The notes beneath the pieces were generated by a model, which saw only the letters and a program-made list of their open reading frames with translations, was not told the origin of the DNA and searched no databases. DNA of 64,000 nucleotides. Origin: Lachnotalea glycerini. GTDB lineage: Bacteria; Bacillota; Clostridia; Lachnospirales; Lachnospiraceae. Numbering within the stretch: the first letter of the stretch is position 1; each line of letters opens with the position of its first letter. The translations under genes and the position numbers were made by a program. The stretch spans positions 210,678-274,677 of the forward strand of contig NZ_QICS01000001.1 of the NCBI RefSeq assembly GCF_003201285.1, given 5' to 3'. Positions 4,146 to 64,000 of the stretch are shown in pieces.

Positions 4146-5465
4146 TTGAAGGTTGCATTGATGTCAGTTGAGAATAATATTATACGAAAGGAAAAAAGTT
4201 ATCGTAATATAATCGAAAGTCTTGCAGAATATAAAAGGCGGGAACAGTTATGGGACTGTCCTAACTTGGGACTTTTGACAATTGCCGGATATTTTCCGGA
4301 AAAATGGGATATCACATATATTGATTTAAATAAAGAGCCATTAGAGTATAAAAAATATGACTGGGTATTTATTTCTGCCTCTACGGGACAGATTAATCGT
4401 GCTTATGAAGTTGCTGATGGATTTAAAAACATGCAAGTAAAGGTAGCAATCGGAGGTATTCACGCATCTGTGTGTAAGGAGGAGGCTATGAACCATGCAG
4501 ATGTTGTATTTGTAGGAGAATTTGAACCTGTTTATAAGCAGTTTTTGATGGACATGGAAGTAGGGACAGTGAAGAAATTTTATGAAAGTGCAGAAAAACC
4601 AAATTTGGATGATACAAAATGCCCCAGGTATGATTTAGCGGGCAAATATTCCTATCATGTGGTACCTGTTCAATTGTCCAGAGGATGCCCTCATGCTTGC
4701 AAATTTTGTGCATCGACAAAGGTTTATGGAAGAAGAAGGCGGGAAAAAAATTTGTCTTCTGTTGAAGAAGAAATTAAAACAATACAGAGCTTATGGAACC
4801 ATGCTTTTTTATTTTTTACAGATGACAATATGTTTATAAATCGTGATTACATAATAGGATTGTTAAGAATATTGAAAAAGTATAAAATGCAGTGGTACGC
4901 TTTTTCAGATATTCGTATTTCAGATGATGATGAATTGTTGGAGCAACTGGCTCAAACAGGCTGCCGTCAGCTTTTAATCGGTTTTGAGAGTATGTCTGAT
5001 GACAGTCTTTGTGAAATTAATGAAAATCAATGGAAAAAGAAACAAAAAAACAAATACTATTCTGCTGTTGAAAAAGTTCAATCATTTGGAATCGGAGTTG
5101 TAGGCAGTTTTGTATTGGGATTTGATCATGATAATGAAAAGTCGTTTGTTGATATTGCAGAATTTGTAGAACAGACCAAAATATATGCGACTAACATAAC
5201 GATACTTACACCGTTTCCAGGAACTGATTTATATGAGCAATATGTGAAAGAAAATCGTATTATAAGTAAAAATTGGTCATGTTTTAACGGATTTGAATTA
5301 ACTCATCATTTAAAACAAATGACATTAGAGGAATTTGAAAAAAATTATATGGAGCTAAATCAAAGAATTAATTCGAGTAAACGAATGTACGTAATGCTGA
5401 ATTATTTTAAAAATATATTGAAATTACGTTTGCAGTGTGACAAAGGAGGAAATCAAGATGAATAA
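4146..5465 (+). CDS. B12-binding-type radical SAM protein (1 of 6)
   Basis: The 439-residue protein has an N-terminal Rossmann-like region of the cobalamin-binding kind (about 1-150) and a radical SAM core with Cys181, Cys185 and Cys188 in RGCPHACKFC. It resembles the BchE/P-methylase-like class that uses a [4Fe-4S] cluster, SAM and often cobalamin for methylation, cyclisation or rearrangement at unactivated carbons. The start is TTG 4146, after AGAGGTGG. It is closely related to the proteins at 10427, 19950, 31304 and 40993. Its 3' end has a decayed copy near 38222. The first gene of the locus; substrate unknown. Confidence 0.85.
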   Translation: MKVALMSVENNIIRKEKSYRNIIESLAEYKRREQLWDCPNLGLLTIAGYFPEKWDITYIDLNKEPLEYKKYDWVFISASTGQINRAYEVADGFKNMQVKVAIGGIHASVCKEEAMNHADVVFVGEFEPVYKQFLMDMEVGTVKKFYESAEKPNLDDTKCPRYDLAGKYSYHVVPVQLSRGCPHACKFCASTKVYGRRRREKNLSSVEEEIKTIQSLWNHAFLFFTDDNMFINRDYIIGLLRILKKYKMQWYAFSDIRISDDDELLEQLAQTGCRQLLIGFESMSDDSLCEINENQWKKKQKNKYYSAVEKVQSFGIGVVGSFVLGFDHDNEKSFVDIAEFVEQTKIYATNITILTPFPGTDLYEQYVKENRIISKNWSCFNGFELTHHLKQMTLEEFEKNYMELNQRINSSKRMYVMLNYFKNILKLRLQCDKGGNQDE

Positions 5466-5544
5466 AGTTGTATTTGTAGGTGCGGTCAACCTCCCAGTTG
5501 GTAAAACAAACCAAATACAGATTGAGGGATGGGGGGTAAAATAA
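5458..5544 (+). pseudogene. Truncated thiolase start (remnant)
   Basis: A good ribosome site (AAAGGAGG) and ATG open a 28-codon frame beginning MNKVVFVG and continuing LPVGKTN. The intact thiolase at 38331 begins MNKVVIVD and continues TPVGKTN, and the DNA upstream of both is also alike. After about 16 codons the similarity ends and a stop precedes the ketosynthase. I read it as the front end of a duplicated thiolase cut by a rearrangement. It may still be translated as a short peptide. Confidence 0.75.
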
Positions 5545-6756
5545 TTGGATATTGCAATATCTGGAATGGGAGTTGTTTCAACAGCCGGATATGAACTGGA
5601 AGACTTTTGGAATTATCTATATGGTGGAAATATATCCTATGGAGTAGTAGATGAATTTAATAATCCAAACTACCGAGTACATATTGGTGCTGTTATAAAA
5701 GACAATATGTGGAGAGAAAATCTAACAGATTGTGAGAATGTTTTTGAATATGGAAGAGCCAGCCAATATGCAGCTAGTGCTGTGTTGCGGGCATTCGTAG
5801 ATGCCAACTTGGATAGGATGTCTTTAAAGGATACACGTATTGCTTTGTGTATTGGTACAACAATGGGTGAAGTTGATTATGAAGAGAACATATCAGAATT
5901 GCTGGTGAAAGATGATGCAAATGATTTACCAGACATTAAGAAAATGGCTTATCGATATTCAAGTGATAATATTGCAGAAGGAATCTGTGATATGCTTGGT
6001 ATCCGTGCAAATTACTATATGATTCCTGCCGCCTGCTCCGGTGGAAATTATGCAATCGCATTAGGAGAAAAATTATTAAGAGCAAATAAGGCAGATATTG
6101 TTATTGCAGGAGGAGTGGATGTTTTCTCGAGAGTCGCATTTACTGGTTTTCATAGGTTACTGACGTTATCACCGGATTATTGTCGTCCTTTTGATAAAAA
6201 AAGAAGAGGGTTGGTGATTGGAGAAGGTTGTGGATTTGTAGTCATGGAAGAGAAGGAGCAGGCAAAGAAAAGAACCGATATTCATGGATGCTTGTTAGGC
6301 GCTGGCGTGAAGTCAGATCGATATCATATGGTATCGCCTCATCCTGATGGAGATGGTGCTTATCGAGCTATGAAAGAAGCAATACAGACAGCACAGATAG
6401 GTAAGGATGATATAGATTATATATCAGCCCACGGCACCGGGACAAGTTCTAATGACAGGATTGAAGCCCATGTGTTGCAACAATTGTTTGGGGAAGAAAA
6501 CATTCCACCAACCAGCTCAATCAAATCAATGCTTGGACATTCAATGGGGGCAGCAAGTATTTTGGAATGTATTGCTTCATTGCTAATGATGGAAAAGAAA
6601 ATCATGTTGCCGACTGTAAATCTAATAGAAAAAGATGAGTGCGTAACGTTTAATTGTGTTCCGAATACTCCGCAAAAGAATAAGATGTCCTATGTTATGT
6701 CAAATTCATTTGCTTTTGGTGGACAGGTGGGAAGTATTATATTGAAAGGAAAGTGA
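5545..6756 (+). CDS. Beta-ketoacyl-ACP synthase (type II, KS-alpha)
   Basis: This FabF-type ketosynthase has the full catalytic set: Cys164 in PAACSGGN, His296 in SAHGTGTS and His332 in MLGHSMGA. It is 403 residues, normal for the family, and should condense an ACP-bound malonyl unit with an acyl chain. The likely start is TTG 5545 just after a G-rich ribosome site. Its TGA overlaps the ATG of the next gene, a catalytic-Cys-less partner, so the two probably form a KS/chain-length-factor heterodimer as in type II polyketide and aryl-polyene systems. Confidence 0.85.
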   Translation: MDIAISGMGVVSTAGYELEDFWNYLYGGNISYGVVDEFNNPNYRVHIGAVIKDNMWRENLTDCENVFEYGRASQYAASAVLRAFVDANLDRMSLKDTRIALCIGTTMGEVDYEENISELLVKDDANDLPDIKKMAYRYSSDNIAEGICDMLGIRANYYMIPAACSGGNYAIALGEKLLRANKADIVIAGGVDVFSRVAFTGFHRLLTLSPDYCRPFDKKRRGLVIGEGCGFVVMEEKEQAKKRTDIHGCLLGAGVKSDRYHMVSPHPDGDGAYRAMKEAIQTAQIGKDDIDYISAHGTGTSSNDRIEAHVLQQLFGEENIPPTSSIKSMLGHSMGAASILECIASLLMMEKKIMLPTVNLIEKDECVTFNCVPNTPQKNKMSYVMSNSFAFGGQVGSIILKGK

Positions 6757-7739
6757 TGTATTTGAATATAGATAATGTGATTTGTATTACTTCGTCAGAG
6801 TGTTATGTTGGAAAAGAAAAATCAGGAGATCATGCATGTGTGATTGACGAATCTTATTACATATATTATCAAGGAGAAAATAAAAGCCGCCATTTTGACA
6901 GAATAAGTAAGATACTGCTAACAGGAATGTCTAAGCTTTGTGACAAATACAACTTGAATATGGAAAAGCTGAAAACTGCAGGGATTTATTTGGGAACCCA
7001 GTACTCTTCCTGTAATAGTATTCATACTTTTGATTCAAAAGCTTTGAATGATTCTCCACTATCGGTAAACCCAATTCATTTTCCAGATACGGTAATCAAT
7101 TCACCGGCCAGCCAGTTAAGTATTGAGTATAAAATGGAAAATGAAAATTTTACAATATCAAATGGATTAAATGCTAGCTTGGATGCAATTGGTATTGCAT
7201 ATGAAAGTATCTTATCTAAAGCGACTGAAATAGCGATTGCAGGAGGGGTTGATGAATGGGGAAAAATCCAGTCATATGGAACCCAATGTAAAAAAGAAGT
7301 TGCAGAAGCAGTCGGGCTTGTTTTGCTTGAAGAGGTCAAACAGGATGAAGCCAGACAAAAATCTTATATTCAAATTATCTCTTATGTTTCGGAGAATGTG
7401 AAAAAAGATTGTATTTTATCGGCAGATATTATAAGTGAAGTTTTACGAAAGCAAATAGAAGAAAATTTAAAGGATTATGAACAAAAAATAGAAATATTTG
7501 TTAGCTCTTTACTGGATGAGACGGATGAAAAACATCTATTTGAAGAAGCAGTCAAGAAAAGTGGATTTGATATAGAATTACATTTTAACAATAAAATATA
7601 TTTCGGTGCTACTGGTGTTGTTGAGGTTGATAAGATTTATAAAAAAAGTAAATTAGATTGTTCATTTCAAATATTATTAAATTTAAACAAGAGTATATTA
7701 TCTTGTTTAATCATATCAAGGAATCCCCCTGTATCTTAA
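6756..7739 (+). CDS. Chain-length-factor-like ketosynthase (KS-beta)
   Basis: The 327-residue product is a ketosynthase homologue that has lost the nucleophile: the region equivalent to the active site reads SNGLNASLDA and lacks cysteine. The HGTGT motif is also missing. It is shorter than a standard KS. ATG 6756 overlaps the KS-alpha stop as TGATG, which gives tight translational coupling. In known type II systems the Cys-less partner forms the heterodimer interface and limits chain length; I infer the same role here. Sequence drift is strong in the C-terminal half. Confidence 0.75.
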   Translation: MYLNIDNVICITSSECYVGKEKSGDHACVIDESYYIYYQGENKSRHFDRISKILLTGMSKLCDKYNLNMEKLKTAGIYLGTQYSSCNSIHTFDSKALNDSPLSVNPIHFPDTVINSPASQLSIEYKMENENFTISNGLNASLDAIGIAYESILSKATEIAIAGGVDEWGKIQSYGTQCKKEVAEAVGLVLLEEVKQDEARQKSYIQIISYVSENVKKDCILSADIISEVLRKQIEENLKDYEQKIEIFVSSLLDETDEKHLFEEAVKKSGFDIELHFNNKIYFGATGVVEVDKIYKKSKLDCSFQILLNLNKSILSCLIISRNPPVS

Positions 7740-7793: not shown

Positions 7794-8030
7794 ATGAATA
7801 TTGAAAAAGAAATTAAGGGAATTATTAGTGAAATTGTAGGCATTGCAGAGGATAAAATCGATACAAAAGCATCTTTTCAGGATGATTATGGTCTGGATTC
7901 TTTGCGAGCATTAGAAATTTTGGCAGCTGTGGAAAATAAATTTGGTATTGTGATAGATCCGGAGAAACTTTCAGAAATGGTTAATGTTGATAATGTTGTA
8001 AGAATTGCAAAGGAATATATTAATGTATGA
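7794..8030 (+). CDS. Acyl carrier protein
   Basis: This 78-residue acidic protein has the phosphopantetheine site YGLDSLRALE, with the serine of DSL as attachment point. It follows a strong AAAAGGAGA site and overlaps the dehydratase gene by 4 bp (ATGA). It is the likely carrier for the KS/KS-beta pair. Confidence 0.9.
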   Translation: MNIEKEIKGIISEIVGIAEDKIDTKASFQDDYGLDSLRALEILAAVENKFGIVIDPEKLSEMVNVDNVVRIAKEYINV

Positions 8031-8497
8031 AAAACAAATTAACTTTTGAACAGATTAGAAAAATATTACCACAGCGTCCGCCATTTCTATTATTGGATAA
8101 AGTAATTGATTATGAAGTACATAAAAGTTTAGCAGGGTACAAAAATATAACGGGAACAGAAGAATTCTCCAATGTTCACTTTGGGGAGTGTGCTATTTAT
8201 CCCGGAGTATTTCTGATAGAAATAGCGGCACAAGCCTCTGCATTGCTATTCCTTCTTTCAAATGAAGAGGTGGACATTAAGGAGAAAAAAAACAAGTTTG
8301 GTTTGCTTGGAAATGTTTCGCAGTTTCAGTTTTTAAATATTGTGACACCAGGTGATTGCTTAGAAGTTCATGTATTTATGGTAAGAGAGATTAATCAAAT
8401 GGCAATTACAAAGGTTGAGATTACTTGTGAGGAAAGGCTGGTAGCAAAGGGGCAGTTATCTTTTGGAGTAAAAGAATATGAAGAAATATATCAATAA
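8027..8497 (+). CDS. FabZ-like 3-hydroxyacyl-ACP dehydratase
   Basis: The 156-residue protein has the hotdog-fold dehydratase pattern: ILPQRPPFLLLDKV near the N-terminus, then HFGECAIYPGVFLIEIAAQ, giving the catalytic His and the helix Glu of the FabZ/FabA family. It would remove water from 3-hydroxyacyl-ACP to give a trans-2-enoyl chain. It is coupled to the ACP by an ATGA overlap and overlaps the next KS by 20 bp. No dedicated enoyl reductase is adjacent, so the chain may keep its double bonds and become a polyene. Confidence 0.85.
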   Translation: MKNKLTFEQIRKILPQRPPFLLLDKVIDYEVHKSLAGYKNITGTEEFSNVHFGECAIYPGVFLIEIAAQASALLFLLSNEEVDIKEKKNKFGLLGNVSQFQFLNIVTPGDCLEVHVFMVREINQMAITKVEITCEERLVAKGQLSFGVKEYEEIYQ

Positions 8498-9650
8498 TGT
8501 ATTAATTACCGGATTAGGAGCAGTGACACCCTTTGGGTGTTCCTTAGAATCTATTTTTGAAAAGGTATTAGACTTGCAGATAATTCAAGAGGGAGGTCAA
8601 GAATGCATCAGCAAAATGGTAATTAACAGAAGTCATTCTATGGTTACCTGTAAAGAATTATTTCTTTGTATGTGTAAGGACGCAATTGAAAATGCGATTG
8701 CAGACTGGGGAAAAGACAGGATGAAATTTTTTGATGTTCCTCTTATACTTGGTTCCGGATTAGGATTGACAGACGCGCTGGGAGAACAAAGTTATAAATT
8801 AACTGGGAGTAATTTTTTATCTGAAATTGGTGATGAACTAAAAAAAACCTATGAGTTTATAGGAAGTGTATATTATTTTTCTAACGCATGTGCTGCGAGC
8901 AGTCAGGCAGTTTGCTATGGAGCGGACTTAATAGGATATGGGGAAAAAGAGATTGCTATTGTTGGCGGAGTTGATATTTATTCTAATATCGCAAAAGCAG
9001 GATTTGAGAGACTCTGTTCACTGGATCAGACAGGCTGCCATCCGTTTGATGCAGGCAGAAAAGGTATTTCAGTTGGTGAAGGAGCTGCCTTTTTTATCCT
9101 AGAGTCTGAAAGTTCTAACACTGTCATTTCACCCTTGCAAGCAAGTGAAAGCATGCATGTCAATATTGATAAAAGCTATGCTAGAATCATGGGTTATGGT
9201 TCAACCAATGATGCTTTTGATGTGGTACGAATGGATACGCAAGGTACTCAAATCATACGTGCAATGGAACAGGCTGTTACGATGGGAAATATAAAGAAAC
9301 AACAGATAACAGCGGTGATTGCTCATGGAACCGGAACGAAATTGAATGATAAAGTGGAAGCAAAACAAATTTCTTGCTTTTTTCGTGATTGTGGGAAAAT
9401 ACCTTATGTTGTAGCTCCAAAGGGAATGTTTGGGCATACTGGCGGTGCATCTGGAGCAATTAGTTTATTATATGCAATAGGGATTTTTCAATATCATATG
9501 CTTCCGGCTATACCGGGTCTCGTTAATAAAGACCAAGAAATTTCAATTCCGTTGGTTGATAGGGAAAGTATGAAAATAGAAGCAAAATATATTTTAATCA
9601 ATTGCTTTGCCTTTGGAGGAAGCAATGTAGTCCTTTTGGTAGGAAAGTAG
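8478..9650 (+). CDS. Second beta-ketoacyl-ACP synthase
   Basis: A 390-residue ketosynthase with complete catalytic residues: Cys138 in SNACAASSQ, His283 in IAHGTGTK and His320 in MFGHTGGA. It begins inside the dehydratase gene, with GGAG about 11 bp before ATG 8478. It differs clearly from the KS at 5545, so the set has two active condensing enzymes, for example one for initiation and one for elongation. It may pair with the half-KS that follows. Confidence 0.85.
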   Translation: MKKYINNVLITGLGAVTPFGCSLESIFEKVLDLQIIQEGGQECISKMVINRSHSMVTCKELFLCMCKDAIENAIADWGKDRMKFFDVPLILGSGLGLTDALGEQSYKLTGSNFLSEIGDELKKTYEFIGSVYYFSNACAASSQAVCYGADLIGYGEKEIAIVGGVDIYSNIAKAGFERLCSLDQTGCHPFDAGRKGISVGEGAAFFILESESSNTVISPLQASESMHVNIDKSYARIMGYGSTNDAFDVVRMDTQGTQIIRAMEQAVTMGNIKKQQITAVIAHGTGTKLNDKVEAKQISCFFRDCGKIPYVVAPKGMFGHTGGASGAISLLYAIGIFQYHMLPAIPGLVNKDQEISIPLVDRESMKIEAKYILINCFAFGGSNVVLLVGK

Positions 9651-9662: not shown

Positions 9663-10202
9663 ATGAAAATGAAACGAAAAGGAATTACAGTATATAAAAA
9701 TATAGCAGGAAATGAATGGAATGAAGATACATTTAAGAGTATTCAATATCGAACAACAGATAATTTTACAAAGTGTGCAATAGCGGGAGTTAGTAAGGTT
9801 TTAATTGAGGTGGATGCTTCAAAAATCGATAAAAATTATCTTGGTGTTTTAGTTGCTACATCGACAGGCGCCTATCATTCGATTCAGAATATATATTCTG
9901 ATTATCTTCAACTTGGGTTTAGAAAAATCAATCCGTCTTTGTTTCCTAATATTATGATGAGTACCGTATTATCATGGTGTACCAGACAAAGCGGGGCACA
10001 TGGAAACAGTACAACATTATTGGTAAGTCAAAAACAGGAAAAAGAGCAGATTTATGAATATCTGAGCATGCAGTTAGACAGTGGTCGCTGTAATTATATG
10101 ATTGCAGTTTATTTAAACGATCAAGCAGATGGATATTGTATTTGGACAGAAAGAGAAGAAACTGCGATTCAAAGAGGAGATCATATAAAGATATATTTTT
10201 AG
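9663..10202 (+). CDS. Half-length ketosynthase-like protein
   Basis: The 179-residue product resembles only the N-terminal half of a ketosynthase: VLVATSTGAYHS matches the GTSTG turn and NPSLFPNIMMSTVLSW matches the FPN segment. There is no active-site cysteine nucleophile motif and no His motifs. It lies 12 bp after an active KS and has its own start, so it is probably a dedicated partner subunit. A recently truncated KS is the alternative, but the reading frame is clean to its stop. Confidence 0.65.
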   Translation: MKMKRKGITVYKNIAGNEWNEDTFKSIQYRTTDNFTKCAIAGVSKVLIEVDASKIDKNYLGVLVATSTGAYHSIQNIYSDYLQLGFRKINPSLFPNIMMSTVLSWCTRQSGAHGNSTTLLVSQKQEKEQIYEYLSMQLDSGRCNYMIAVYLNDQADGYCIWTEREETAIQRGDHIKIYF

Positions 10203-10426: not shown

Positions 10427-11734
10427 ATGTGTAATATACTTCTGCTGGTGCCCAAAAGCCCAGGTCCTGTTTTGGGAAAAAGGTGGAATTCTTCTTGGTC
10501 TGAGGAATTAGAGGAAATAGTAACGAATAATTATTGGTATACCATAGCGAATGGGGTACTGGTATTAGGAGCAATTGCAAAGAAACGTGGTTTACACGTT
10601 GATATCGTAGATGAGGAAATAACCAATATAGATTACAGTATCCATTATGATATAGTAGCTATGTATACAGTTACACCAAATGTATGCCGTTGTTATGAGT
10701 TGGCACAAAAATATAAAGAACTTGACTCCTATGTAGTCTTAGGTGGAGTTCATGCTACTGTATTTTCAGATGAAGCCTTGCAGCATGCAGACACCATACT
10801 AATTGGGGAAAGTGAATATACATGGAATACTTTTTTAGATGACTTTCAAAAAGAAATTCCACAAAGAGAATATAGGCAGGAAACAGGAACTGTTAATTTG
10901 AAAGATTCACCGATTCCTCTATTTGAAGCAATTCCATCAAATTATGATGGAATGATTCCGATTCAAACGGCAAGGGGATGTCCACATGGCTGCCAGTTCT
11001 GTGATTTAAGAAGTTTATATGGAAATTCATATCGTGGAAAATCAATCAAACAGGTGCAGTCGGAAATTGAAAAGACACTACAGGTAAACCAATCTAAGAA
11101 TATTTATTTTACAGATGATAATCTGTTTTGCGTGAAAAAAAGAGCATCAAACATGATGGAGATGTTACAGGAATACAAATTATCATGGGTTACCAATACA
11201 GATGTGTCATTTGGTATGGATCAGGAATTAATTAAGAAAGCATCCAAAGCGGGATGCAGGAGAGTTTTAATTGGACTGGAAAGTGTGAATCGATCGAATT
11301 TAATCGATTTGGATCAACATAATTTTAAAAGTAAACACAGGGATTGTTATGAAGAAGCAATTGAAAATATTCAGGGGCAAGGAATTGGAGTAATAGGGAG
11401 TTTTATCGTAGGCTTAGACGCAGACACCGAAGAAACGTTTTCTGAGATTTATGAATTTGTACAAAACACTGGTTTGTCGGGAGTCAACATTACAGTAAAT
11501 ACGCCCTTTCCAGGGACTGAAATGTTTCAAACAATGAAGAAAAATAATAGGATTCAAACATTTGATTGGGGTCAGTATACCATTTTTCAGCCTGTGATTA
11601 GTATAAAAAATATGCCAACCGATGTATTTCAAGATCAGTATGCTGACTTACTGTTAAAAATACATGAACCGGAAGCTGTTATGGCTCGAAAGAATATTAT
11701 GAAAGAGTCAATCAAGAAAAGGCTAAACGGATAG
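10427..11734 (+). CDS. B12-binding-type radical SAM protein (2 of 6)
   Basis: This 435-residue protein has the radical SAM cysteines at 185, 189 and 192 in RGCPHGCQFC and a preceding cobalamin-binding-like domain with VLGGVHATVF at about residue 105. It is the most divergent of the five close paralogues: its N-terminus lacks the PNLGLLT segment of the others. A strong TTAGGAGG site precedes ATG 10427. The 2-hydroxyacyl-CoA dehydratase-like genes follow within 11 bp, so it likely acts in the same branch. Expected chemistry is radical methylation, cyclisation or rearrangement. Confidence 0.85.
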   Translation: MCNILLLVPKSPGPVLGKRWNSSWSEELEEIVTNNYWYTIANGVLVLGAIAKKRGLHVDIVDEEITNIDYSIHYDIVAMYTVTPNVCRCYELAQKYKELDSYVVLGGVHATVFSDEALQHADTILIGESEYTWNTFLDDFQKEIPQREYRQETGTVNLKDSPIPLFEAIPSNYDGMIPIQTARGCPHGCQFCDLRSLYGNSYRGKSIKQVQSEIEKTLQVNQSKNIYFTDDNLFCVKKRASNMMEMLQEYKLSWVTNTDVSFGMDQELIKKASKAGCRRVLIGLESVNRSNLIDLDQHNFKSKHRDCYEEAIENIQGQGIGVIGSFIVGLDADTEETFSEIYEFVQNTGLSGVNITVNTPFPGTEMFQTMKKNNRIQTFDWGQYTIFQPVISIKNMPTDVFQDQYADLLLKIHEPEAVMARKNIMKESIKKRLNG

Positions 11735-11744: not shown

Positions 11745-13907
11745 ATGGATAGAAAAATACGAATCGGTTATTCCTGCTCCTATGTTCCGTCCAGCTTATT
11801 GGAACAGGCCGGATTGGAAATGATAAAAGTCAGCGAGCGCGAGTTGGAGAATTTAGCAGGAAATAAGGATATGTTAAATACCTTGTGTAGTCTTGCATTA
11901 AAAAGTACCGCTGTAATAGATGCTTGTGATCTAGATGGCTTTATTTTTACTAATTGCTGTAACAGTATGCAACGGGCATACGACTATCTGATCCATAAAG
12001 GAAAAAAGGTGTACCTCCTTGAAATAGAACGAAAACAGAGAGAGGATTACAAAGAGTACTACACCCATTGCGTGCGGGAGCTATTAGAACATATCGCTTA
12101 TGACTTTCCTATCCAAAAGAATTTAAACAATATAACAATAAAAGCTGGATGGAATATTCCGATGTGGAAAAACGATTTTGATGAAAAAGCAGTTTTGGTA
12201 ATAGCAAACATAATTCCGACGCATATAGAGAAACTATTTCACGATATCATTCAGCCATGCAGACTTATCATAAAAAGCTGTCATAGGATGATTTGTGATC
12301 AAGAAGAAAAGAATCCGTCTGTTTTGGAAAGAGAACCCTGCGTTCACAGCTTTGAATTTGCGAAATGGTTAGAAGAACTACTTCAGAAGAATCAAGAGAA
12401 ACTATATGGAATCATATTTCTAACCTCCTCTTATTGTGATGCTTCCTTATTTATGTATCCCTATGTAAGGAAAACAGCGAGAAAATATAATATTCCCGAG
12501 ATTTGTTTGGAAACCAGCTTTGACTATAGTGGTATGGGTCAAGTGGCAACCAGAGTAGAAGCTTTTATGGAAGGAATACAGAATAGAAAAATTTATCAGT
12601 ATCAATCAACGAGCGAAGAGTTTAAGTCGAAAAAACAAGATGTGCGTCTTGACGCTGTGATTTCATCCTTACAAGAAAGTGGAACCATACGCGCAGATAT
12701 GAAAGAAAATATCACTTTTCTGACCAAAATTCGATATGTAAGAGCAGTCGTTGGCAAAATGGAATATGATTGCCTGAAAACATTAATATCTTACCAAATA
12801 GATATGGTAATAAATAAATTAAAGGGTGAAAGCGAAAAAATAGTTTGGACGAACATGGTGATGCCGGTTGAGCTGTTTTATTCCATGGGGCTAATACCGG
12901 TACATATTGAATTGATTTCGGGGTGGCTTGCCTCACTTGGCTTGTCCAAACACTATATTATGCTGGCAGAAAGTATGGGAATTGCAAGTGCAGTTTGTTC
13001 CTATCACAAAGCAGTCTTAGGCCTGCTGATTTCAGAAGAATGTCTTCATCCAAAAACTATGGTTTTTGCGTCTACGATTTGTGATGGAGGCTTTGCTTTG
13101 GGTGAATATTGCAGCCAGAGGTTTGGCACTAATACCTTTTCTATCGAAGTTCCTTATGAGGATAATGAGGAGTCTTGTCAGTTTGTTAGTAAGCAGTATG
13201 AAACTCTTATTTATTGGTTGGAGCAAAATACAGGAATGAAATATAGTAAGAAGAAGTTTGAAGAGGCGCTGCAATTATCAAATCAGTCACGCAAAGGGTG
13301 GATTGAGGCCAACCGAATGCGAAAGGATACACCTGATTTTAAGGGAAGACTGGCACTTAGAAATTTATTTGGAACTACGTTTTTGTTTGGCTCAAAGATT
13401 GGAGTTCAGGTAGTAGAAGAATATAAAAAAGACATTCAAAGACTACAAAAGCAAAAGACCGGTGAGAAGAGAAGAAAAAGAATTTTATGGGTTCATTTTA
13501 GTCCACTTTATCGAAATGAATTATTAGAATACATGGAAGAGGATCTTGGACTTTCAGTGAGTGCTGATATAGTAAGTTACATTTATTGGAATGAATATAA
13601 AATGGAAGATGGTATATTGGATGTATCAAAACGATTACTATCACATTTTTATATAGGAAATGAAAAGAGAAGAAAAAACATATTTAACGATATCATAAAT
13701 GAGTATGAGATTGATGGGATTATTCATTACATGCACCGAGGATGCAGGACAATTGGAGGATCAGCCTGGTTGATACGTGAGCTTGCGCTAGAAAGGCATT
13801 TACCATATATGGAGTTGCATGGTGACTGTATCGATCCTCGTGGAAATGCGAGCCAGCAGGATTTTACCAGATTGGAAGCATTTAAGGAAAGTTTGGAAGG
13901 AGTGTAA
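11745..13907 (+). CDS. 2-hydroxyacyl-CoA dehydratase-like protein, two HgdB-type domains fused
   Basis: At 720 residues this is about twice the usual subunit length. The first half (about 1-290) carries the HgdB/BcrC-type pattern GYSCSYVPSSLLEQAG and FTNCCNSMQRAYDYL. The second (about 330-720) carries WTNMVMPVELFYSMGLIPV, a later cysteine (STICDGG) and MHRGCR. Such subunits bind [4Fe-4S] clusters and dehydrate 2-hydroxyacyl-CoA, or in benzoyl-CoA reductase reduce an aromatic ring, using electrons from an ATP-driven activator. The activator follows after 2 bp and a third HgdB-like protein after that. The fusion and the polyketide context are unusual; substrate unknown. Confidence 0.8.
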   Translation: MDRKIRIGYSCSYVPSSLLEQAGLEMIKVSERELENLAGNKDMLNTLCSLALKSTAVIDACDLDGFIFTNCCNSMQRAYDYLIHKGKKVYLLEIERKQREDYKEYYTHCVRELLEHIAYDFPIQKNLNNITIKAGWNIPMWKNDFDEKAVLVIANIIPTHIEKLFHDIIQPCRLIIKSCHRMICDQEEKNPSVLEREPCVHSFEFAKWLEELLQKNQEKLYGIIFLTSSYCDASLFMYPYVRKTARKYNIPEICLETSFDYSGMGQVATRVEAFMEGIQNRKIYQYQSTSEEFKSKKQDVRLDAVISSLQESGTIRADMKENITFLTKIRYVRAVVGKMEYDCLKTLISYQIDMVINKLKGESEKIVWTNMVMPVELFYSMGLIPVHIELISGWLASLGLSKHYIMLAESMGIASAVCSYHKAVLGLLISEECLHPKTMVFASTICDGGFALGEYCSQRFGTNTFSIEVPYEDNEESCQFVSKQYETLIYWLEQNTGMKYSKKKFEEALQLSNQSRKGWIEANRMRKDTPDFKGRLALRNLFGTTFLFGSKIGVQVVEEYKKDIQRLQKQKTGEKRRKRILWVHFSPLYRNELLEYMEEDLGLSVSADIVSYIYWNEYKMEDGILDVSKRLLSHFYIGNEKRRKNIFNDIINEYEIDGIIHYMHRGCRTIGGSAWLIRELALERHLPYMELHGDCIDPRGNASQQDFTRLEAFKESLEGV

Positions 13908-14689: not shown

Positions 14690-14746
14690 AGTCAAGCAGC
14701 AAAAGTAGATTTTAATATCTGCTTTCAATAAATGATGGAGGCCGTT

Positions 14747-15931
14747 ATGAATCAGTATCACTATTATCTGGATTTATCCGTTCGATTAGCAAAAGCAAGA
14801 AATAAAAATTATTTAGCCGAATTTTTAACAGAACAACGAAATGTCTTAGACAGATGTTTTGGAGGGGAAGATTATGTCCTTGCAACTTATTACATACCAA
14901 ATGAGCTTTTGGTACCATTTGATTTGCCTGTGATTTATAGCGATAGAATTGCAGGCTTTGGAGCGGCTTGTAATCTGCTTAAGGAAGAAGAGTGGAAGAA
15001 ATCGGATCAATACACATCCAGGTGTTCGTACCAGATTTATTTGAATTCTATGTTGAAGAAAAAGATACTGCCACTGCCAAAATTAATTGTAGCATCGAAC
15101 TATCCATGCAATAGTGCATATCAATTTTGCAAAGAATTGTCTGAAACGTATCAAATACCATTTCTGGATTTAAAGGTGAAGCGGCAGGAAAGCACAGAAG
15201 CTTATCAAGATCATGTTAAGCAAATGGAGCAAATATTTCAATATTTAAAAGACCATTTTTCTGTAAAAAAAAGTATACAGAGTGTAGTTAACATATCAAA
15301 CCAGATGATTTTGATTAAGAAAGAAATTGACGACATAAGAAATCAGTATTTAGGAATCATAGATACACAAGATATGTTAAATATCTTTACTTTATATAAT
15401 GATTTTGGAAAAGAAAGTTCTGTTGAAGCTTTGCAGATGCTTAGAGATGATCTTCATTCTAAAACAGAGAATTATTCATGGAAGCCAGGTGTGAAAAAAC
15501 TTATGTGGCTTGGCACAACGCCGCTATGTATGAGTTTAATAGATAAGATAGAAGAACAATATGCTTGTAAATTTGTTTGTGAGGATCTTTTTCTATTTTG
15601 TGCAAAAGAGATACATTTCGATACATTTTGTCAAGATTTAGTAAAACGGATTATGGATTCAATTTTTTTTACCGAGGAAAAGAGGGTTTTTAAAACAATG
15701 GAGATTGCTAAGCGTTATCAGGTAGATGGCATTGTACATTATTCGCAGCGAATCTGTAAATTTCTTCCTCCTATGTTTCCAAAGATTCAAAAAGCGTTTT
15801 CTGATATTCGTATCCCAGCAATAGAATTATGTGGGGATGGAATTGAGAGAGCTAGCTGGGATAAAAATTATAAAGAACAAATTGAAACAATGATGCGTAT
15901 ACTTTGTGAGGATAAAAAAATTGAATGTTGA
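14747..15931 (+). CDS. HgdB-like dehydratase subunit
   Basis: A single HgdB-type subunit of 394 residues. It shows ATYYIPNELLVPFDLPVIY, CSYQ and SNYPCNSAYQFCKE as the cluster-binding region, and later LWLGTTPLC. ATG 14747 is preferred over 14732 because GGAG lies 6 bp before it. With the fused HgdB-HgdB protein and the activator it would make a complete system with an extra subunit, recalling benzoyl-CoA reductase subunit sets. Whether it works on CoA or ACP thioesters cannot be read from the sequence. Confidence 0.75.
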   Translation: MNQYHYYLDLSVRLAKARNKNYLAEFLTEQRNVLDRCFGGEDYVLATYYIPNELLVPFDLPVIYSDRIAGFGAACNLLKEEEWKKSDQYTSRCSYQIYLNSMLKKKILPLPKLIVASNYPCNSAYQFCKELSETYQIPFLDLKVKRQESTEAYQDHVKQMEQIFQYLKDHFSVKKSIQSVVNISNQMILIKKEIDDIRNQYLGIIDTQDMLNIFTLYNDFGKESSVEALQMLRDDLHSKTENYSWKPGVKKLMWLGTTPLCMSLIDKIEEQYACKFVCEDLFLFCAKEIHFDTFCQDLVKRIMDSIFFTEEKRVFKTMEIAKRYQVDGIVHYSQRICKFLPPMFPKIQKAFSDIRIPAIELCGDGIERASWDKNYKEQIETMMRILCEDKKIEC

Positions 15932-16664
15932 TATCGTTTTATATGATAAGAGAGCGTATATAAAATTACATAGAAAAAATGCAAATGCCTTAAACTTATC
16001 ATTTCTTAAAGAATTGTCAAACTGCATTGATGAAGTTGAAACATTAAAAGAGATTCGCTTGGTTATAATCCAGTCTGCTATCAAAGGAATTTGTTCATCC
16101 GGATTGGATTTAGGTGAATTATTTATAAAAGATGACCGTAAGAAAACAAGACAAAATATCATGACAGCAGTAAAAATGGTTTTTGAGATAAACCAGAAAA
16201 TACTTGGATCAAAACATATCTATTACTTTATTGCAAATGGTGCATTAATAGGCTCGGCAGTTTCTATTATGCTGGCGTGTGATATAAGGGGTGCTACAAA
16301 TAATAGCTGGATATGGCTTCCTGATGTCAGGTATGGAGGATTACTGGGAGATGGTGGAATTGATTTATTAGTGCAGCGTAGTTCAATCGCAGATGCAAAT
16401 AGTATAGGTCTTTTAAATAGTAGATATAATGCCGCACAATTAAGGAATAATGGAGTTTTTGACTGGGTTTGTAAAACAGACGAAGTGGAATTATACATAC
16501 AAAAGGAACTTATAAGAATCGAAGAATTTTCTTTATTATCCATGAGTTTAACTAAAAAAATAATAAATCAACAGATTCGGATTACCTATCAAGAGGAGCT
16601 GTTACATCAGATTTTTGATTCAGAGGATGTTTATATACAGATGTCTAAGTATATTAAGAATTAG
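15921..16664 (+). CDS. Enoyl-CoA hydratase/isomerase (crotonase) family protein
   Basis: The product (about 247 residues) has the crotonase pattern: LHRKNANALNLSFLKEL near the start, then GICSSGLDLGELF (oxyanion-hole loop), and ANGALIGSAVSIMLACDIRG. The fold handles hydration, isomerisation or decarboxylation of acyl thioesters. It overlaps the end of the HgdB-like gene. TTG 15921 has GAGGA 8 bp upstream; GTG 15906 is an alternative. It may act after the dehydratase step, or serve as an ECH of a beta-branching cassette. The catalytic acids usual in hydratases are not obvious. Confidence 0.75.
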   Translation: MNVDIVLYDKRAYIKLHRKNANALNLSFLKELSNCIDEVETLKEIRLVIIQSAIKGICSSGLDLGELFIKDDRKKTRQNIMTAVKMVFEINQKILGSKHIYYFIANGALIGSAVSIMLACDIRGATNNSWIWLPDVRYGGLLGDGGIDLLVQRSSIADANSIGLLNSRYNAAQLRNNGVFDWVCKTDEVELYIQKELIRIEEFSLLSMSLTKKIINQQIRITYQEELLHQIFDSEDVYIQMSKYIKN

Positions 16665-16764: not shown

Positions 16765-17502
16765 ATGAAAAATGTACTAATATCAGGCGGAACTAGAGGA
16801 ATTGGACGAGCCATTATTTCATCATTGCTTGAAAAGGGGTATCAGGTAGCCTACACCTATAAGGAAAATAAAGAGCTTGCAAGGCAGATTGATGAAATGG
16901 CAAGAGATAATTGTCAGGTTGCAAAAGGATATCAGGTGGATATTTGCAATCAAAATGCAGTCAAGCAATTGATAAAGGATATCAATAATGAGTGGGGTAA
17001 CATTGATATTCTGATTAATAATGCCGGTATTACCAAGGATAAATCATTGGCTATGATGTCATATGAAGAATGGGATATGGTAATTAAGACGAATTTATAT
17101 GGTGTTTACAATCTGACAAGGGAATGCATTTATCCAATGCTTCGCCAAAAGGACGGACGGATTATTAATATTAGTTCTACCAGCGGGATAAATGGAATGA
17201 GGGGACAATGCAATTATTCAAGTTCAAAAGCAGCTATAATAGGTTTTACCAAATCTCTTGCAAAGGAAGTGGCGCATTTTGGAGTTACGGTAAACTGTAT
17301 TGCGCCTGGTGGTGTAGAGACAGATATGACTCAGAAAATGAGTGAGGCAGAGAGAAAGAAACTATTAGAAGGTGTGCCAATGGAGAGGCTTTGTATGCCG
17401 GATGAAGTAGCAAAAATAGTAGTATTTTTAGCTGATCAAAAGCTTTGTCCACAATATCTGACAGGAGTTACCATACCTTTAGACGGAGGACTTGGACTGT
17501 GA
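16765..17502 (+). CDS. FabG-type 3-oxoacyl-ACP reductase (SDR)
   Basis: A classical short-chain dehydrogenase of 245 residues: SGGTRGIGRA cofactor motif, NNAG, catalytic Ser in ISSTSG, YSSSK catalytic Tyr/Lys, and a GGLGL-type C-terminus. It should reduce 3-oxoacyl-ACP to the 3-hydroxy form with NAD(P)H and feed the FabZ-like dehydratase. AAGGAG precedes ATG 16765. Its stop overlaps the GTG start of the GGDEF-NHL gene. Confidence 0.9.
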   Translation: MKNVLISGGTRGIGRAIISSLLEKGYQVAYTYKENKELARQIDEMARDNCQVAKGYQVDICNQNAVKQLIKDINNEWGNIDILINNAGITKDKSLAMMSYEEWDMVIKTNLYGVYNLTRECIYPMLRQKDGRIINISSTSGINGMRGQCNYSSSKAAIIGFTKSLAKEVAHFGVTVNCIAPGGVETDMTQKMSEAERKKLLEGVPMERLCMPDEVAKIVVFLADQKLCPQYLTGVTIPLDGGLGL

Positions 17503-48343: not shown

Positions 48344-48378
48344 TTTCTTGCATGAAAAAACATAACTTGGGAACCCAT

Positions 48379-48420
48379 AAAACATTAAGTAGCCCGAGCA
48401 GGGCGGATTTTGAATGTTTT
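48379..48420 (+). other. Hairpin between accA and accB
   Basis: An outer 8-bp stem (AAAACATT / AATGTTTT) encloses GCCC-GAGCA-GGGC. Only a short T run follows, so it may be a weak terminator, an attenuator or a processing site between the two halves of the carboxylase operon. Confidence 0.4.
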
Positions 48421-48522
48421 TAGGATTGTGGCAGCAGTGCGTAACAATACGTAGGTATCTGGGGTTAAAATACATTTTGACCTCTACATCATAATAATAG
48501 TTGAATGAGGGAAAAGAATAGG

Positions 48523-63400: not shown

Positions 63401-64000
63401 GATGCAAATTTTTATAAGGAATGAGGGGATTGCACAGATTAACAACGGACTTTTTGGATTGTTGAAAACCGCAGAGCAGGAAAATCCGGATTTTCATGGG
63501 CAGGTGATTTTGGTTGACAGTGACGAATCTCTCTTTGAGGTCAGACAAAAAATACTGGAAAACCGATTGTGCATAGAGGATCAAGAAATTTTATACGCGG
63601 ATAACAAACGATTTGTCAAACAATTAAAGGAAGTATCCAATGTGGATAGAACAGACTGGGATTGTTGGCGTGAGGATGGTGTTTATCTATTGACTGGCGG
63701 TACAGGAGAATTAGGTTTCTTGTTTGCAAAAGAAATTGCAAAGAAAGCGGCTCATCCGGTGATTATCCTAGCCGGACGAAGTGAGCTTGGTGATGAGAAA
63801 AAACGTAAATTAAAAGACATCCAAAATTGGGGAGCAGAGGTACATTTTAAGCAGGTGGATGTAAGTAAATCAGAGGAAGTAAATAACCTGATTCAAGAGG
63901 TGCTGGAACAACATGGAAAGCTAAATGGCATTTTACATTTTGCGGGGATTAACCGGGATCAATACCTATTAAGAAAGTCCAAACAAGAAGTTACACAGGT
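54453..64000 (+). CDS. trans-AT polyketide synthase, first modules (partial)
   Basis: Starts at ATG 54453 (AGGAGTAG upstream) and stays open to the window edge: 3182 residues so far. Order: KS1 (about 18-445; Cys188, His323, His363), a 430-residue linker, DH1 (about 950-1230; His975, Asp1123), KR1 (about 1465-1690; GGMGGIG, Tyr1612), tandem ACPs (Ser1762, Ser1871), KS2 (about 1970-2412; Cys2141, His2276, His2326), DH2 (His2633, Asp2802), KR2 begins (GGTGELG near 3080). No active AT is present, so loading must come from the fusion at 50522. All visible catalytic residues are intact. Each KS-DH-KR module should add a double bond. Confidence 0.95.
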   Translation, partial: MKNRRNINLKTNSNKKNMDIAVIGIACRFPDARNYHEFWENLKNGVNSIQEITKERWDVHKYYSKDQSEKNKSYCKWSGCLDKFEYFDNKFFNISPREALEMDPHQRQLLEVSWQCVEDAGIPIKRLQNRNTSVIMSESNSDYKQRAYSVNRTIDSYTNIGNYESSLANRISFSLGFCGQSYAITTACASGITVIHEAKKSLQCGESNYVLAGSANIIMDAKRYISYSKARMLSKDGQCKTFDEAANGFVPGEGVGVVLLQPLEDAIREKNHIYAVIKGSSSNHIGKHTSITVPSMKSQMNLLSSALHDAKMDAATVGYIEAHGTGTVLGDPIEVEALSNVFKQNTDKKQFCRIGSVKTNIGHLEGASGMAGFIKTVLMLSNRSIPKTLNINRHNPIIEFKNSPFIPAEKTQEWNRIENAIPLRAGVSAFGFGGSCSHILLEEYEEKEKKETKQDTKKLYLTLSAKSINSLNMILKEWKSFVESERFAHANLPDICRTSMLSRFDMPYRFGCEVIDKDQLKQAIKESDGSYRKNECDEWYLVLGDLKLYGVEDFKTLYDSDCNYKNQLLFFHDMLTEEEWKGLFLKEWKDKEQKRNTFIVYYAFAKVIKEYGFQGKENLFEGIGVWVFLALSEVVKVEQVLAYLSDKISFNQITLSRPITPFYDPVHRQMIAPFVIAQSYLTSLTTNLWVEPAYLNQYVQKAKVLYKINYTFQKFMEEWNEALGQYHRNVHELLQNSESATDEKVTEDSLILLVIVVSSLRRLYMKWDITDHAICGSVQLIEFIDLILDKVAPKEIVVELLLSNRSVALAPQQISQLNENLSKLDRKKPYEILRKFNEQLCEIPDLFQWIEDLNAKPLELDLKDSDGILKIGTCEGFQIHGGSLIQVNGKLQDMLSECIFQLWLYGENVNWTLYCPEDTFTKVSLPVYEFDQKAYLLPAAGDTLTAFEKIENPKTELNSGTQSVFHIEDDVVKDHIITGVNLLPGAALITFALEQLTKKTDQTAIHFSGITISKPAIVKSELKIDFLKYDDDIYSLKSEKVEISKGSYKEIEPKLSQVSFREIDTYPRADLQELYHYFYKMGYQYKAAFQVIKKIYEVNHNYLAYLNEKEPYSKGMCSPYLLDGVIQSVLAACYLQGKRMNGESLYIPYQIKDIYFYGELKDACFVVLEKALICMNKKSIVASICVYDKNGRLVIEIKDLQMILCKKDFLLFYHKQNTVRLETENVPLSLFQPVWMKQEIPNAMDHRMNHAVIFMDSVLGGELQKLIQNRYEKVTYLYEGNAFSTVHDRIVIRAAYEKDYEDFWKELNLQNEGKRQDFDFYYLWSYEQIDQNDLEQAQDRILSPIFYLCKSLAKIRVNSKVNLIILVNDCFAADKKDTVSNYLCGGISGLAKTMMSECPRISIQVVDIKKNENTNSNIAMLLWREQCSSNRENRIAYRHHDRLLCGMQKEEIPNRSEITILRECGIYLIIGGMGGIGYRLIEEISKNVNATIIIIGSSALDVKRSKKLEVVNKDRAAVKYYQCDIADEQNLKSVLLEIKQKYKQINGVIHCGGINQDKLIIGKEWTEFKEVLSPKTKGTYLLNKLTAKEPLDFFVVCSSIVSVLGNIGQSDYATANGFVDTFMEYRRRNGFHGKSITINWTLWDQTGMGKNDNAVSLFQNKTGIITYIQGVKTFLKLIENAVGQVIVIADEKAFLNYSEKIGIHILEHSNITPKEQGRIVMSNEMEAQILVNELITMLGELLGVDQSEIGDKTDLREFGLDSITLNEFAEMMNQKLNIDINSTLLFEYPTMKEISEYLLAEYKERIEAYCAPLKHEKLMQIVEEVPTVAVKQEESENDLIELLSTMLSTLLGVDESDIDEKTDIREWGLDSISFNEFTDRINQNLGTNINSTLLFEYSTIEEIANYLQKECKTEMSQKKNRKQNTINSKTDQTQKVESLESLFSEASDSNQVVKDEDMVTVPPVAKSDIQEPMAIIGMSGTFPKAKDLDEFWENLDAETDGISEVPKSRWDWKKYDGDPGKEENKTNIKWGGFIEDTDQFDPLFFGISPREAESMDPQQRLLMMYVWKAIEDAGYSTDSISDSDAGIFVGTIESGYQDLLRKAGVPIEGFSAAAAIPSIGPNRMSFFLNIHGPSEPIETACSSALVAIHRAVKAIEEGTCSLAIAGGINTIVSPDRHISFNKAGMLCQDGHCKTFSANADGYVRSESVGMIVIKKLSEAEKDRDHIYAVIRGTAENHGGYANSLTAPNPKAQAEVIKRAMRRSGIDPRTVTYIEAHGTGTKLGDPIEINGLKMAYKQLYQEWGIEDDEDATKQYCGIGSVKTNIGHSEFAAGIVGVIKILLQLQHKTLAKSLYCDTLNPYIQLEKSPFYIVTQKQTWNALKDESNQDIPRRAGISSFGFGGVNSHVVIEEYISDLNQRMEKNQKRTDREIIVLSAKSESMLKKRVEDLLDVMEKKAFQDTMLADMAYTLQVGRKAMEERLAVVVGSIEELKDKLRTYLLLGSNGIEDCYTGKAKKTYDSIETFSNNEEQKERQNRWLQTGSYEKLLGDWVKGLNLNWADLYQRAGIRKRISLPSYAFDKERYWVFGESNSNNSLPSRPSNLNIHPLIQKNESNLREIKYSSTFTGEEFFLSAHVINGKRILPGAAYLEMAYTAVKEMLELSKKEQRLISLNHVAWAMPIVVKQDLVTVQTKLALEEDGSVTYVICDKADQRKIYNEGRVLLQENAIHTKLELDYVKEQCNQKTFSKKQIYDELESIGFQYGEAQQGIEMLYVGEETILAKLALPKIIESTKDHYFLHPSLLDSAIQSIYGLMLTEKKAEVFIPFALEELTVYEEAPDFAWVSIHTGGNVKTGSKIKKYDIDLYNKNETICASLKGLTLKKYETDKTSVIEEAENVLFVPEWVEKKPDLNRVAFSGRHCVLFLEEQGFTAENLKEELKYDIGETECFIVTSKEVMVTKRIHDYVLQVFEQVKDRMTSKNEAEVLMQIFIRNEGIAQINNGLFGLLKTAEQENPDFHGQVILVDSDESLFEVRQKILENRLCIEDQEILYADNKRFVKQLKEVSNVDRTDWDCWREDGVYLLTGGTGELGFLFAKEIAKKAAHPVIILAGRSELGDEKKRKLKDIQNWGAEVHFKQVDVSKSEEVNNLIQEVLEQHGKLNGILHFAGINRDQYLLRKSKQEVTQ
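56680..56860 (+). other. Possible decayed AT segment within PKS module 1
   Basis: Within the long KS1-DH1 linker (about residues 743-803), the stretch SLRRLYMKWDITDHAICGSV resembles the acyltransferase core before and at GHSxGE, but the active-site motif is gone. KS2 has only the usual short flanking segment of about 190 residues, half as long. I infer an ancestral AT lost its function here. Confidence 0.45.

What the first reader, a model, noticed from the sequence alone, without database searches (positions are those of the whole stretch)
4146..64000. A composite biosynthetic locus joining type II KS, B12 radical SAM, 2-hydroxyacyl-CoA dehydratase and trans-AT PKS genes
About 60 kb of one-directional, often overlapping genes brings together four enzyme systems rarely seen in one place. 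They are a KS/KS-beta/ACP/FabZ set, seven radical SAM proteins, a HgdB/HgdC-type system, and a trans-AT assembly line with its own acetyl-CoA carboxylase. The overlaps and the shared duplicate fragments argue that it evolved as a unit. I know of no described cluster with this combination.
Basis: partly seen in the sequence, partly recalled or inferred. Interest (0 to 1): 0.9.

Follow-up and report, generated by a model that had tools for sequence, protein, structure and literature searches.

The report
Anaerobic polyketide cluster with internal duplication
An unnamed Clostridia-type bacterium carries a 41-kb gene cluster that looks built to make an unusual, possibly DNA-reactive small molecule from a mix of enzyme types we did not find together elsewhere, and beside it a second, more ordinary polyketide assembly line.

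Summary
Units A+B (4146-45536, 38 ORFs, all +) hold two ketosynthase/truncated-partner pairs, three ACPs, FabZ, two SDR reductases, six B12-type radical SAM proteins plus one HemN-like one, a fused 2-hydroxyacyl-CoA-dehydratase-type protein with ATPase activator, GGDEF-NHL proteins, an ABC exporter pair and two DNA-glycosylase-like proteins. Unit C (46669 to about 107.5 kb, beyond the window) is a trans-AT PKS with a beta-branching cassette and its own ACC; a stand-alone relative exists in another genome. New evidence: A and B share nine DNA matches, five of them gene fragments or edges in collinear order, so 37.4-42.4 kb looks like a decayed duplicate of 4.0-19.2 kb. A+B against C gives none. 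Codon usage does not separate them. No full-length relative of the 720-aa fused protein was found in the sets searched. Best reading: a type II polyketide chain tailored by radical SAM chemistry and a low-potential reductase, exported, with DNA repair for self-protection. The product is unknown; nothing is shown biochemically. New variant of a known kind; interest 0.62.

The parts
4022..4067 (+). remnant of an NHL gene like 37261
   Evidence: 84.8% to 37423-37468, E 1.1e-7; translated fragment matches 37261
4146..5465 (+). B12-type radical SAM protein 1
   Evidence: Pfam; CxxxCxxC
5458..5510 (+). thiolase remnant
   Evidence: same start as thiolase 38331 (MNKVV...PVGKTN)
5545..6756 (+). ketosynthase KS1, Cys-His-His present
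6753..7739 (+). truncated KS partner (CLF/CYF-like) 1, no active-site Cys
7794..8030 (+). ACP
8027..8497 (+). FabZ-like dehydratase
8478..9650 (+). ketosynthase KS2, Cys-His-His present; AmcF model is the best NCBIfam match
9663..10202 (+). half-KS partner 2 (179 aa)
   Evidence: weak NCBIfam match; alignment
10427..11734 (+). B12-type radical SAM protein 2 (B12 domain below cut-off)
11745..13907 (+). fused HGD-D protein, beta-like half then alpha-like half, 720 aa
13910..14689 (+). HgdC/BadF-type ATPase activase
   Evidence: TIGR00241 above cut-off
14732..15931 (+). second alpha-like HGD-D protein
15906..16664 (+). enoyl-CoA hydratase family
16765..17502 (+). FabG-like SDR
17445..19019 (+). 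GGDEF + NHL fusion
19016..19918 (+). alpha/beta hydrolase
19884..21269 (+). B12-type radical SAM protein 3
21292..22251 (+). FabD-like acyltransferase (below cut-offs)
22251..22496 (+). ACP
23138..26719 (+). ABC exporter pair (23138-24910, 24932-26719)
26719..27351 (+). UDG-like protein (Pfam 23.1 bits, cut-off 24.3)
   Evidence: relatives
27375..28196 (+). Fpg/MutM-like DNA glycosylase, residue 2 Ala not Pro
28213..28890 (+). HAD hydrolase
28891..31341 (+). PEP-synthase-like ligase or phosphotransferase (Rph/PigC-like layout)
31304..32620 (+). B12-type radical SAM protein 4
32604..33191 (+). no family match; looks TetR-like by eye
33201..34604 (+). B12-type radical SAM protein 5 (separate branch)
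34561..36093 (+). degenerate GGDEF + NHL fusion
36096..36350 (+). ACP
36369..37274 (+). SDR reductase
37261..38160 (+). NHL protein
38227..38330 (+). remnant of the 3' end of a 4146-like radical SAM gene
38286..39503 (+). thiolase (likely start 38331)
39449..40822 (+). HemN-like (class C type) radical SAM
40887..40922 (+). remnant of a 9663-like half-KS
   Evidence: 88.9%, E 1.4e-6
40993..42306 (+). B12-type radical SAM protein 6
42272..42310 (+). match to the start region of radical SAM gene 10427
   Evidence: 87.5%, E 4.8e-6
42331..42426 (+). remnant of hydrolase 19016
   Evidence: 81.8%, E 2.3e-16
42442..43170 (+). nitroreductase family
43244..45536 (+). three ORFs without family match (43244, 44416, 44742)
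46669..50371 (+). unit C: AccD, AccA, BCCP, AccC
   Evidence: copies on G000:C2
50522..64000 (+). unit C: AT-ER, ACP, decarboxylase-type KS, trans-AT PKS (continues beyond the window)

Best explanation
4146-45536 is one biosynthetic gene cluster of a (probable) anaerobe. Two KS/truncated-partner pairs with ACPs, SDR ketoreductases and FabZ build an unsaturated chain on ACP (no FabI/FabK-type enoyl reductase was called), perhaps with ring closure as in AmcF-AmcG. Six B12-type radical SAM enzymes and one HemN-like enzyme then add carbon or close rings without oxygen. The fused HGD beta/alpha protein, powered by its ATPase activase, does a low-potential step on a thioester (removal of a 2-hydroxyl or reduction of a conjugated or aromatic acyl group). 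A PEP-synthase-like enzyme joins or phosphorylates, the ABC pair exports, and the two DNA-glycosylase-like proteins protect the producer, so the product may well be DNA-reactive. The cluster grew by a segmental duplication: 37.4-42.4 kb is a decayed collinear copy of 4.0-19.2 kb. 46669 onward is a separate trans-AT PKS cluster. Shown from sequence: families, active-site residues, duplicate fragments, a stand-alone relative of C. Inferred: every catalytic step, the order of steps, the product. My odds: one biosynthetic cluster A+B 0.85; separate from C 0.75; DNA-reactive product 0.35.
For: Families and residues. The C half of 11745 aligns to the HadB alpha subunit (3o3m_A, 2.2e-15), the N half weakly to its beta subunit (3o3m_B, 2.3e-4); three Cys of the C half are invariant in 7 aligned sequences; activase above its cut-off. 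Duplication: 9 A-B matches, 5 of them collinear fragments, 0 in 10 Markov shuffles. Five B12-rSAMs form a clade: 95/86 among 17 sequences, 100/100 among 28. Glycosylase genes lie in one tight run with exporter, ligase and rSAM (gaps 21, -1, 23, 16, 0, -38 bp). Resistance glycosylases inside clusters are known (PMC9040887, passages); HemN-like C10P takes part in cyclopropane formation (PMC6050322, passages); AmcG is a reduced KS partner (PMC10698177, passages and section 9). B12-rSAM with HGD alpha, beta and activase recurs in G122, beside UbiA and squalene-hopene-cyclase genes.
Against: No product, expression or enzyme data. 26719 is below the Pfam cut-off, has no PDB match, and its model failed (pLDDT 28.9). 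27375 lacks the Pro at position 2. Relatives of the two sit as single genes with no cluster-type neighbours in the four neighbourhoods I looked at (G002, G048, G021, G077), so they may be general repair genes. No rSAM passes a specific equivalog cut-off, so methylation, cyclisation or other chemistry cannot be told apart. No AMP-binding acyl ligase was called in A+B. A 641-bp gap separates A from B. Separation from C: codon usage A-C 0.984 is as close as A-B 0.983, and no terminator-like site marks either gap.
Confidence: 0.5

Rival explanations
1. A+B+C is one hybrid pathway: the type II chain of A is a starter or side chain for the trans-AT PKS of C, and ACC supplies both.
For: Same strand and adjacency; codon usage of A and C alike (0.984) and no terminator-like site at the gap. 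A second type II KS/CLF/KR/FabZ cluster on G000:C2 lies directly upstream of an AccDABC set that is 77/82/56/79% identical to the one at 46669-50371, so ACC sets do sit beside type II genes in this genome.
Against: 0 A+B to C DNA matches in 54,885 b, 1132-bp gap and different GC, relative of C in G056 without rSAM or HGD matches, own AT-like gene in A (21292).
Confidence: 0.2
2. A+B makes an unusual membrane lipid (ladderane-, ether- or membrane-spanning-like) rather than an exported agent; the DNA glycosylase genes are bystanders.
For: KS/ACP/FabZ plus B12 radical SAM resembles the Kuenenia clusters proposed for ladderanes (PMC2649909, passages); 31304 scores 106 bits with the model TIGR04072.
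Against: TIGR04072 cut-off is 360; no phytoene-desaturase-like oxidoreductase, present in those clusters, was called here; exporter pair, PEP-synthase-like enzyme and glycosylases have no place in that scheme.
Confidence: 0.2
3. The HGD system is catabolic (fermentation of a 2-hydroxy acid) and only happens to lie there.
For: At all six relative loci fetched, with about 1.5 kb on each side, alpha stands next to a beta-activase fusion, a layout that recurs in the family; what those do is not known to me.
Against: Gaps of 10, 2, 42 and -26 bp tie it to rSAM 10427 and ECH 15906; it is rearranged into a beta-alpha fusion unlike those six; no CoA-transferase was called; linkage with B12-rSAM recurs in G122.
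Confidence: 0.07

Closest known systems
AmcF-AmcG (KS-CYF) type II PKS of cispentacin (PMC10698177)
   Same: active KS followed by a reduced partner without KS motifs; 8478 has the AmcF model as its best NCBIfam match
   Different: scores 216 and 193 bits against a cut-off of 325; two pairs; radical SAM and HGD genes added; an AmcH-type gene was not looked for
Highly reducing / polyene type II PKS (ishigamide, aryl polyene)
   Same: KS, CLF-like partner, ACP, KR, DH, no enoyl reductase called; 6kxd among the PDB matches of KS1 (but on a poor model)
   Different: truncated partners; seven radical SAM proteins
Kuenenia clusters proposed for ladderanes (PMC2649909)
   Same: FASII/KS genes with B12 radical SAM
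   Different: no phytoene-desaturase-like gene; rSAM far below TIGR04072 cut-off; HGD and DNA-glycosylase-like genes present
2-hydroxyacyl-CoA dehydratases / benzoyl-CoA reductases (HadABC, Bcr, double-cubane proteins)
   Same: two HGD-D units with Cys ligands and an ATPase activase
   Different: beta-alpha fusion, extra alpha-like protein, below the specific models matched; biosynthetic setting
CC-1065 / azinomycin / hedamycin clusters (PMC6050322, PMC9040887)
   Same: HemN-like radical SAM (CC-1065) or glycosylase genes (azinomycin, hedamycin) in a cluster
   Different: glycosylases here are UDG/Fpg-like, not the HTH_42 type; product unknown
Trans-AT PKS clusters with HCS cassette (G056:C19 is the nearest found)
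   Same: AT-ER, ACP, decarboxylase-type KS, HMGS, ECH, AT-less modules
   Different: own AccDABC set; different module set

Membership tests
KS-CLF type II PKS | KS with Cys-His-His and adjacent partner lacking the Cys | tested here: met
   KS1 and KS2 keep the triad, 6753 and 9663 lack it
KS-CLF type II PKS | full-length CLF partner | tested here: not met
   partners 328 and 179 aa without the C-terminal KS domain
AmcF-AmcG subfamily | AmcF model NF058662 above cut-off | tested here: not met
   216.0 and 192.8 vs 325
2-hydroxyacyl-CoA dehydratase / BCR superfamily | HGD-D domain(s) plus activase | tested here: met
   PF06050 265.9 and 90.2 bits; TIGR00241 273.8 vs 125.4
2-hydroxyacyl-CoA dehydratase / BCR superfamily | a specific equivalog (HadB, BcrB, double-cubane) | tested here: not met
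   80.8 vs 750; 30.6 vs 486.55; 122.3 vs 350
B12 radical SAM | Radical_SAM and B12-binding domains above cut-off, CxxxCxxC | tested here: met
   5 of 6; 10427 has the B12 domain at 29.6 vs 32.1
Ladderane locus | B12-rSAM of TIGR04072 above cut-off | tested here: not met
   best 106.1 vs 360
Ladderane locus | phytoene-desaturase-like oxidoreductase | tested here: not met
   no such Pfam match in 4146-45536
HemN-like class C methylase/cyclopropanase | function as methylenetransferase | not testable with these tools
   best PDB HemN 1olt 75.3 and NocN 9p2u 74.9 bits; HutW 218.8 vs 400
Resistance DNA glycosylase | glycosylase fold and catalytic residues | tested here: inconclusive
   Fpg-like over 270 aa but Ala2; UDG-like below cut-off, model failed
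Trans-AT PKS (unit C) | free-standing AT(-ER) and AT-less modules | tested here: met
   pfaD_fam 633.8 vs 449.25, fabD 351.4 vs 260.9; no AT match in the window part of 54438; the four later PKS proteins were not scanned with Pfam

The most novel reading that the evidence does not exclude
A clostridial anaerobe makes a strained, DNA-alkylating carbocycle or cyclopropane polyketide. A KS/cyclisation-factor type II PKS builds it, serially duplicated B12 radical SAM enzymes and a HemN-like enzyme install the rings or methylenes, and an ATP-driven fused archerase does a Birch-type or 2-hydroxyl-removing step on the carrier-bound chain; UDG- and Fpg-type glycosylases give self-resistance. Such use of an archerase in a polyketide pathway and of these glycosylase types in self-resistance would both be new as far as I know.
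Probability: 0.17. Interest if true: 0.87.

Novelty: new variant of a known kind. Interest (0 to 1): 0.62.

Why it matters
Oxygen-free equivalents of P450-type tailoring are poorly known. A cluster that puts type II polyketide chemistry, many B12 radical SAM enzymes and an ATP-driven low-potential reductase in one operon-like run would be a direct place to learn that chemistry, and the glycosylase pair makes a testable prediction (a DNA-reactive product). The collinear fragments also record how such a cluster grows: duplication followed by complementary gene loss.

Tried and rejected
Single A+B+C unit: weakened, not excluded. Ladderane membership: rejected on TIGR04072 score and missing desaturase. 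Relatives of the 720-aa protein: 97 other relatives at 1e-40, 6 match, the C half only; 390 other class genomes at 1e-50, none (weaker ones would not show); plasmids at 1e-20, none; genome contigs none with six exact octapeptides, a weak probe. A second genome-contig scan with the GGDEF-NHL alignment drew only on GGDEF patterns; in the 80 loci kept (141 confirmed) no match passes residue 226 of 524, and a tblastn of nine cluster queries against these 80 loci found only HemN-type matches, in 17. KS1 relatives: none at 1e-70 in 97 other relatives, 2 in 397 other phylum genomes, one in a small KR-CLF-KS-FabZ-ACP cluster, one a fatty-acid gene. Empty-site test in the two same-genus genomes: flanking gene 2094 gave no match there, so no site could be compared. 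AlphaFold models of 26719 (pLDDT 28.9) and KS1 (43.5) are too poor to use; the 50 Foldseek rows listed for the KS model are KS/FabF-type entries. I could not learn what PDB entry 9s5h is, although it is the best sequence match of both KS1 and its partner (paper search listed one unrelated paper). Paper searches showed me no description of this combination; apart from the five papers of which I saw passages or a section, I saw listings only, and of the 232 papers of one search only 20.

Full report
Setting. The window is G000:C1:210678-274677 of a 4.86-Mb, 48-contig genome. The one Rfam match, Clostridiales-1 RNA at 48319-48460, suggests Clostridia; an anaerobic life is inferred from that and from the enzymes. 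I extended the view to 144 kb with L009-L012.

What is there. 38 ORFs of my choice on the + strand fill 4146-45536. Unit A (4146-22496) holds three B12-type radical SAM genes, KS1 with a truncated partner, ACP, FabZ, KS2 with a half-KS partner, a fused HGD-D protein, its activase, a second HGD-D protein, ECH, SDR, a GGDEF-NHL fusion, a hydrolase, a FabD-like AT and an ACP. Unit B (23138-45536) holds an ABC pair, a UDG-like and an Fpg-like protein, HAD, a PEP-synthase-like enzyme, three B12-type and one HemN-like radical SAM protein, a second GGDEF-NHL and a plain NHL protein, ACP, SDR, thiolase, nitroreductase and four ORFs without a family match: 32604, 43244, 44416 (Pfam only), 44742. Unit C starts at 46669 with AccDABC.

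Active sites. KS1 and KS2 keep Cys-His-His; 6753 and 9663 lack it. All seven radical SAM proteins have CxxxCxxC. The alpha half of 11745 keeps three Cys that are invariant in the seven aligned sequences. By eye, the beta half and 14732 also carry Cys at the places where this family has ligands (sequences; ligand positions recalled). 27375 has Ala where Fpg has the N-terminal Pro (role of the Pro recalled); its relative in G077 contains MAELPE near its start. 53107 lacks the KS Cys and fits the decarboxylase KS of HCS cassettes (assignment by recalled knowledge and by its relative in G056).

One unit or two. blastn of A against B gives nine matches at E<=1e-4. A+B gives none against C (46669-101553, 54,885 b), none against 20 kb upstream, none against 20 kb of contig C2, and one 37-bp match against 15.9 kb downstream; ten Markov shuffles give none. 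Control stretches also have self-matches (3, 0 and 2), so repeats alone are not special. What is special is what they are. An NHL remnant like 37261 lies before radical SAM 4146. A thiolase remnant lies just behind 4146, while intact thiolase 38331 is preceded by a remnant of a 4146-like gene end. A 9663-like remnant lies before radical SAM 40993, as 9663 lies before 10427. A match to the start region of 10427 overlaps the end of 40993, and a remnant of hydrolase 19016 follows. The five pairs (4022/37423, 5352/38227, 10009/40887, 10399/42272, 19068/42331) run in the same order; the two shortest have E of 1e-6 and 5e-6. The other four matches are between radical SAM genes. The simplest account is a duplication of the 4.0-19.2 kb block followed by complementary loss. 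In trees of 17 and 28 sequences the five B12-type proteins 4146, 10427, 19884, 31304, 40993 form a clade (95/86 and 100/100); 33201 does not join them, and its branch is long. The other sequences were drawn from the neighbourhoods of hits to 4146 or 31304, not from the whole family.

Against a split at 46 kb: codon usage correlates 0.984 for A-C, 0.983 for A-B, 0.967 for B-C, and no terminator-like site was found at the A-B or B-C gap (0 found, shuffles 1.3 and 2.7). So composition gives no verdict except for GC.

Unit C continues to 97555 as five PKS proteins with nine KS domains found by BLAST, then 97582-101553 and 103197-107495, the last including an ECH (105406) and an HMGS-like protein (106236), named by eye and by their place in such cassettes. 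G056:C19 carries a PKS cluster with AT-ER 51%, HMGS 63%, ECH 51%, ACP 29% and KS 46% identical to these and no rSAM or HGD match in the 100 kb read. So C is an ordinary kind of cluster whose like can stand alone. Its ACC set is 77/82/56/79% identical to one on G000:C2 that lies beside a second type II KS/CLF cluster (AccA), which leaves room for shared malonyl supply.

How rare. No full-length relative of the 720-aa protein appeared in 97 other relatives (1e-40), 390 other class genomes (1e-50), the plasmid set or genome contigs; the sets overlap, the cut-offs are strict and the last probe was weak. At the six relative loci fetched the alpha subunit is separate and the beta is fused to the activase; here beta is fused to alpha. 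B12-rSAM relatives: 6 of 390 other class genomes at 1e-58 and 5 of 357 other family genomes at 1e-70. In those 11 neighbourhoods (up to 20 kb a side) I saw no stand-alone KS with partner like A's; G120 and G908 are short contigs of 5 and 15 kb. G122 has rSAM with HGD alpha, beta and activase, and G906 rSAM with activase.

Mechanism. Established family knowledge (recalled) gives KS/KR/DH chain building, B12 radical SAM methylation or ring chemistry, HemN-like methylene transfer, archerase-type low-potential reduction, export. The DNA-glycosylase-like proteins give the one functional hint about the product. 26719 has relatives in 3 of 97 other relatives; for 27375 the only close relative among 60 other genomes is in G077 at 39%, the other listed matches being at 24-28%. 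So they are uncommon genes drawn into the operon-like run, not core genes of the family. This supports, but does not show, self-resistance.

Novelty. The parts are known kinds; I met no description of the combination, the beta-alpha HGD fusion, the GGDEF-NHL fusions or the duplication history in the papers I could search. I rate it a new variant of a known kind.

Noticed in passing
L126-L127 (G122:C1 about 4051777-4075502) and L170-L171 (G906:C4 about 219531-239121): Clusters with UbiA, squalene-hopene-cyclase fused to an ABC permease, U32 proteins, B12 radical SAM and activase genes (Pfam done on G122 only; AMP-ligase-PCP and HGD alpha/beta seen only in G122): look like an anaerobic prenylated-aromatic pathway. 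Their rSAM proteins are near-identical in two different families; in G122 two near-identical recombinase blocks flank the cluster.
   Followed up: partly
L031 (G000:C2:9884-20486): Second type II KS/CLF/KR/FabZ cluster of the same genome with its own AccDABC, 77/82/56/79% identical to the window's set.
   Followed up: partly
48319-48460: Clostridiales-1 RNA match lies mostly in the gap between accA and the BCCP gene of unit C; the C2 copy of the operon has a gap of 1 bp there.
   Followed up: no
L012, window-frame 107547-110717: AgrB-like, LytTR-type regulator and histidine kinase genes just downstream of unit C (identified by eye), a possible quorum-sensing control.
   Followed up: no
17445-19019, 34561-36093: GGDEF fused to NHL repeats, one intact GGDEF and one degenerate; role in a biosynthetic cluster unexplained.
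   Followed up: partly
L175-L176 (G1077:C41:51940-66772): A trans-AT-like PKS region with one B12 radical SAM of the same group next to the PKS genes.
   Followed up: no
3642-3689 and 10277-10324: 48-bp segment, 96% identical, in two gaps upstream of radical SAM genes 4146 and 10427; nature unknown.
   Followed up: partly
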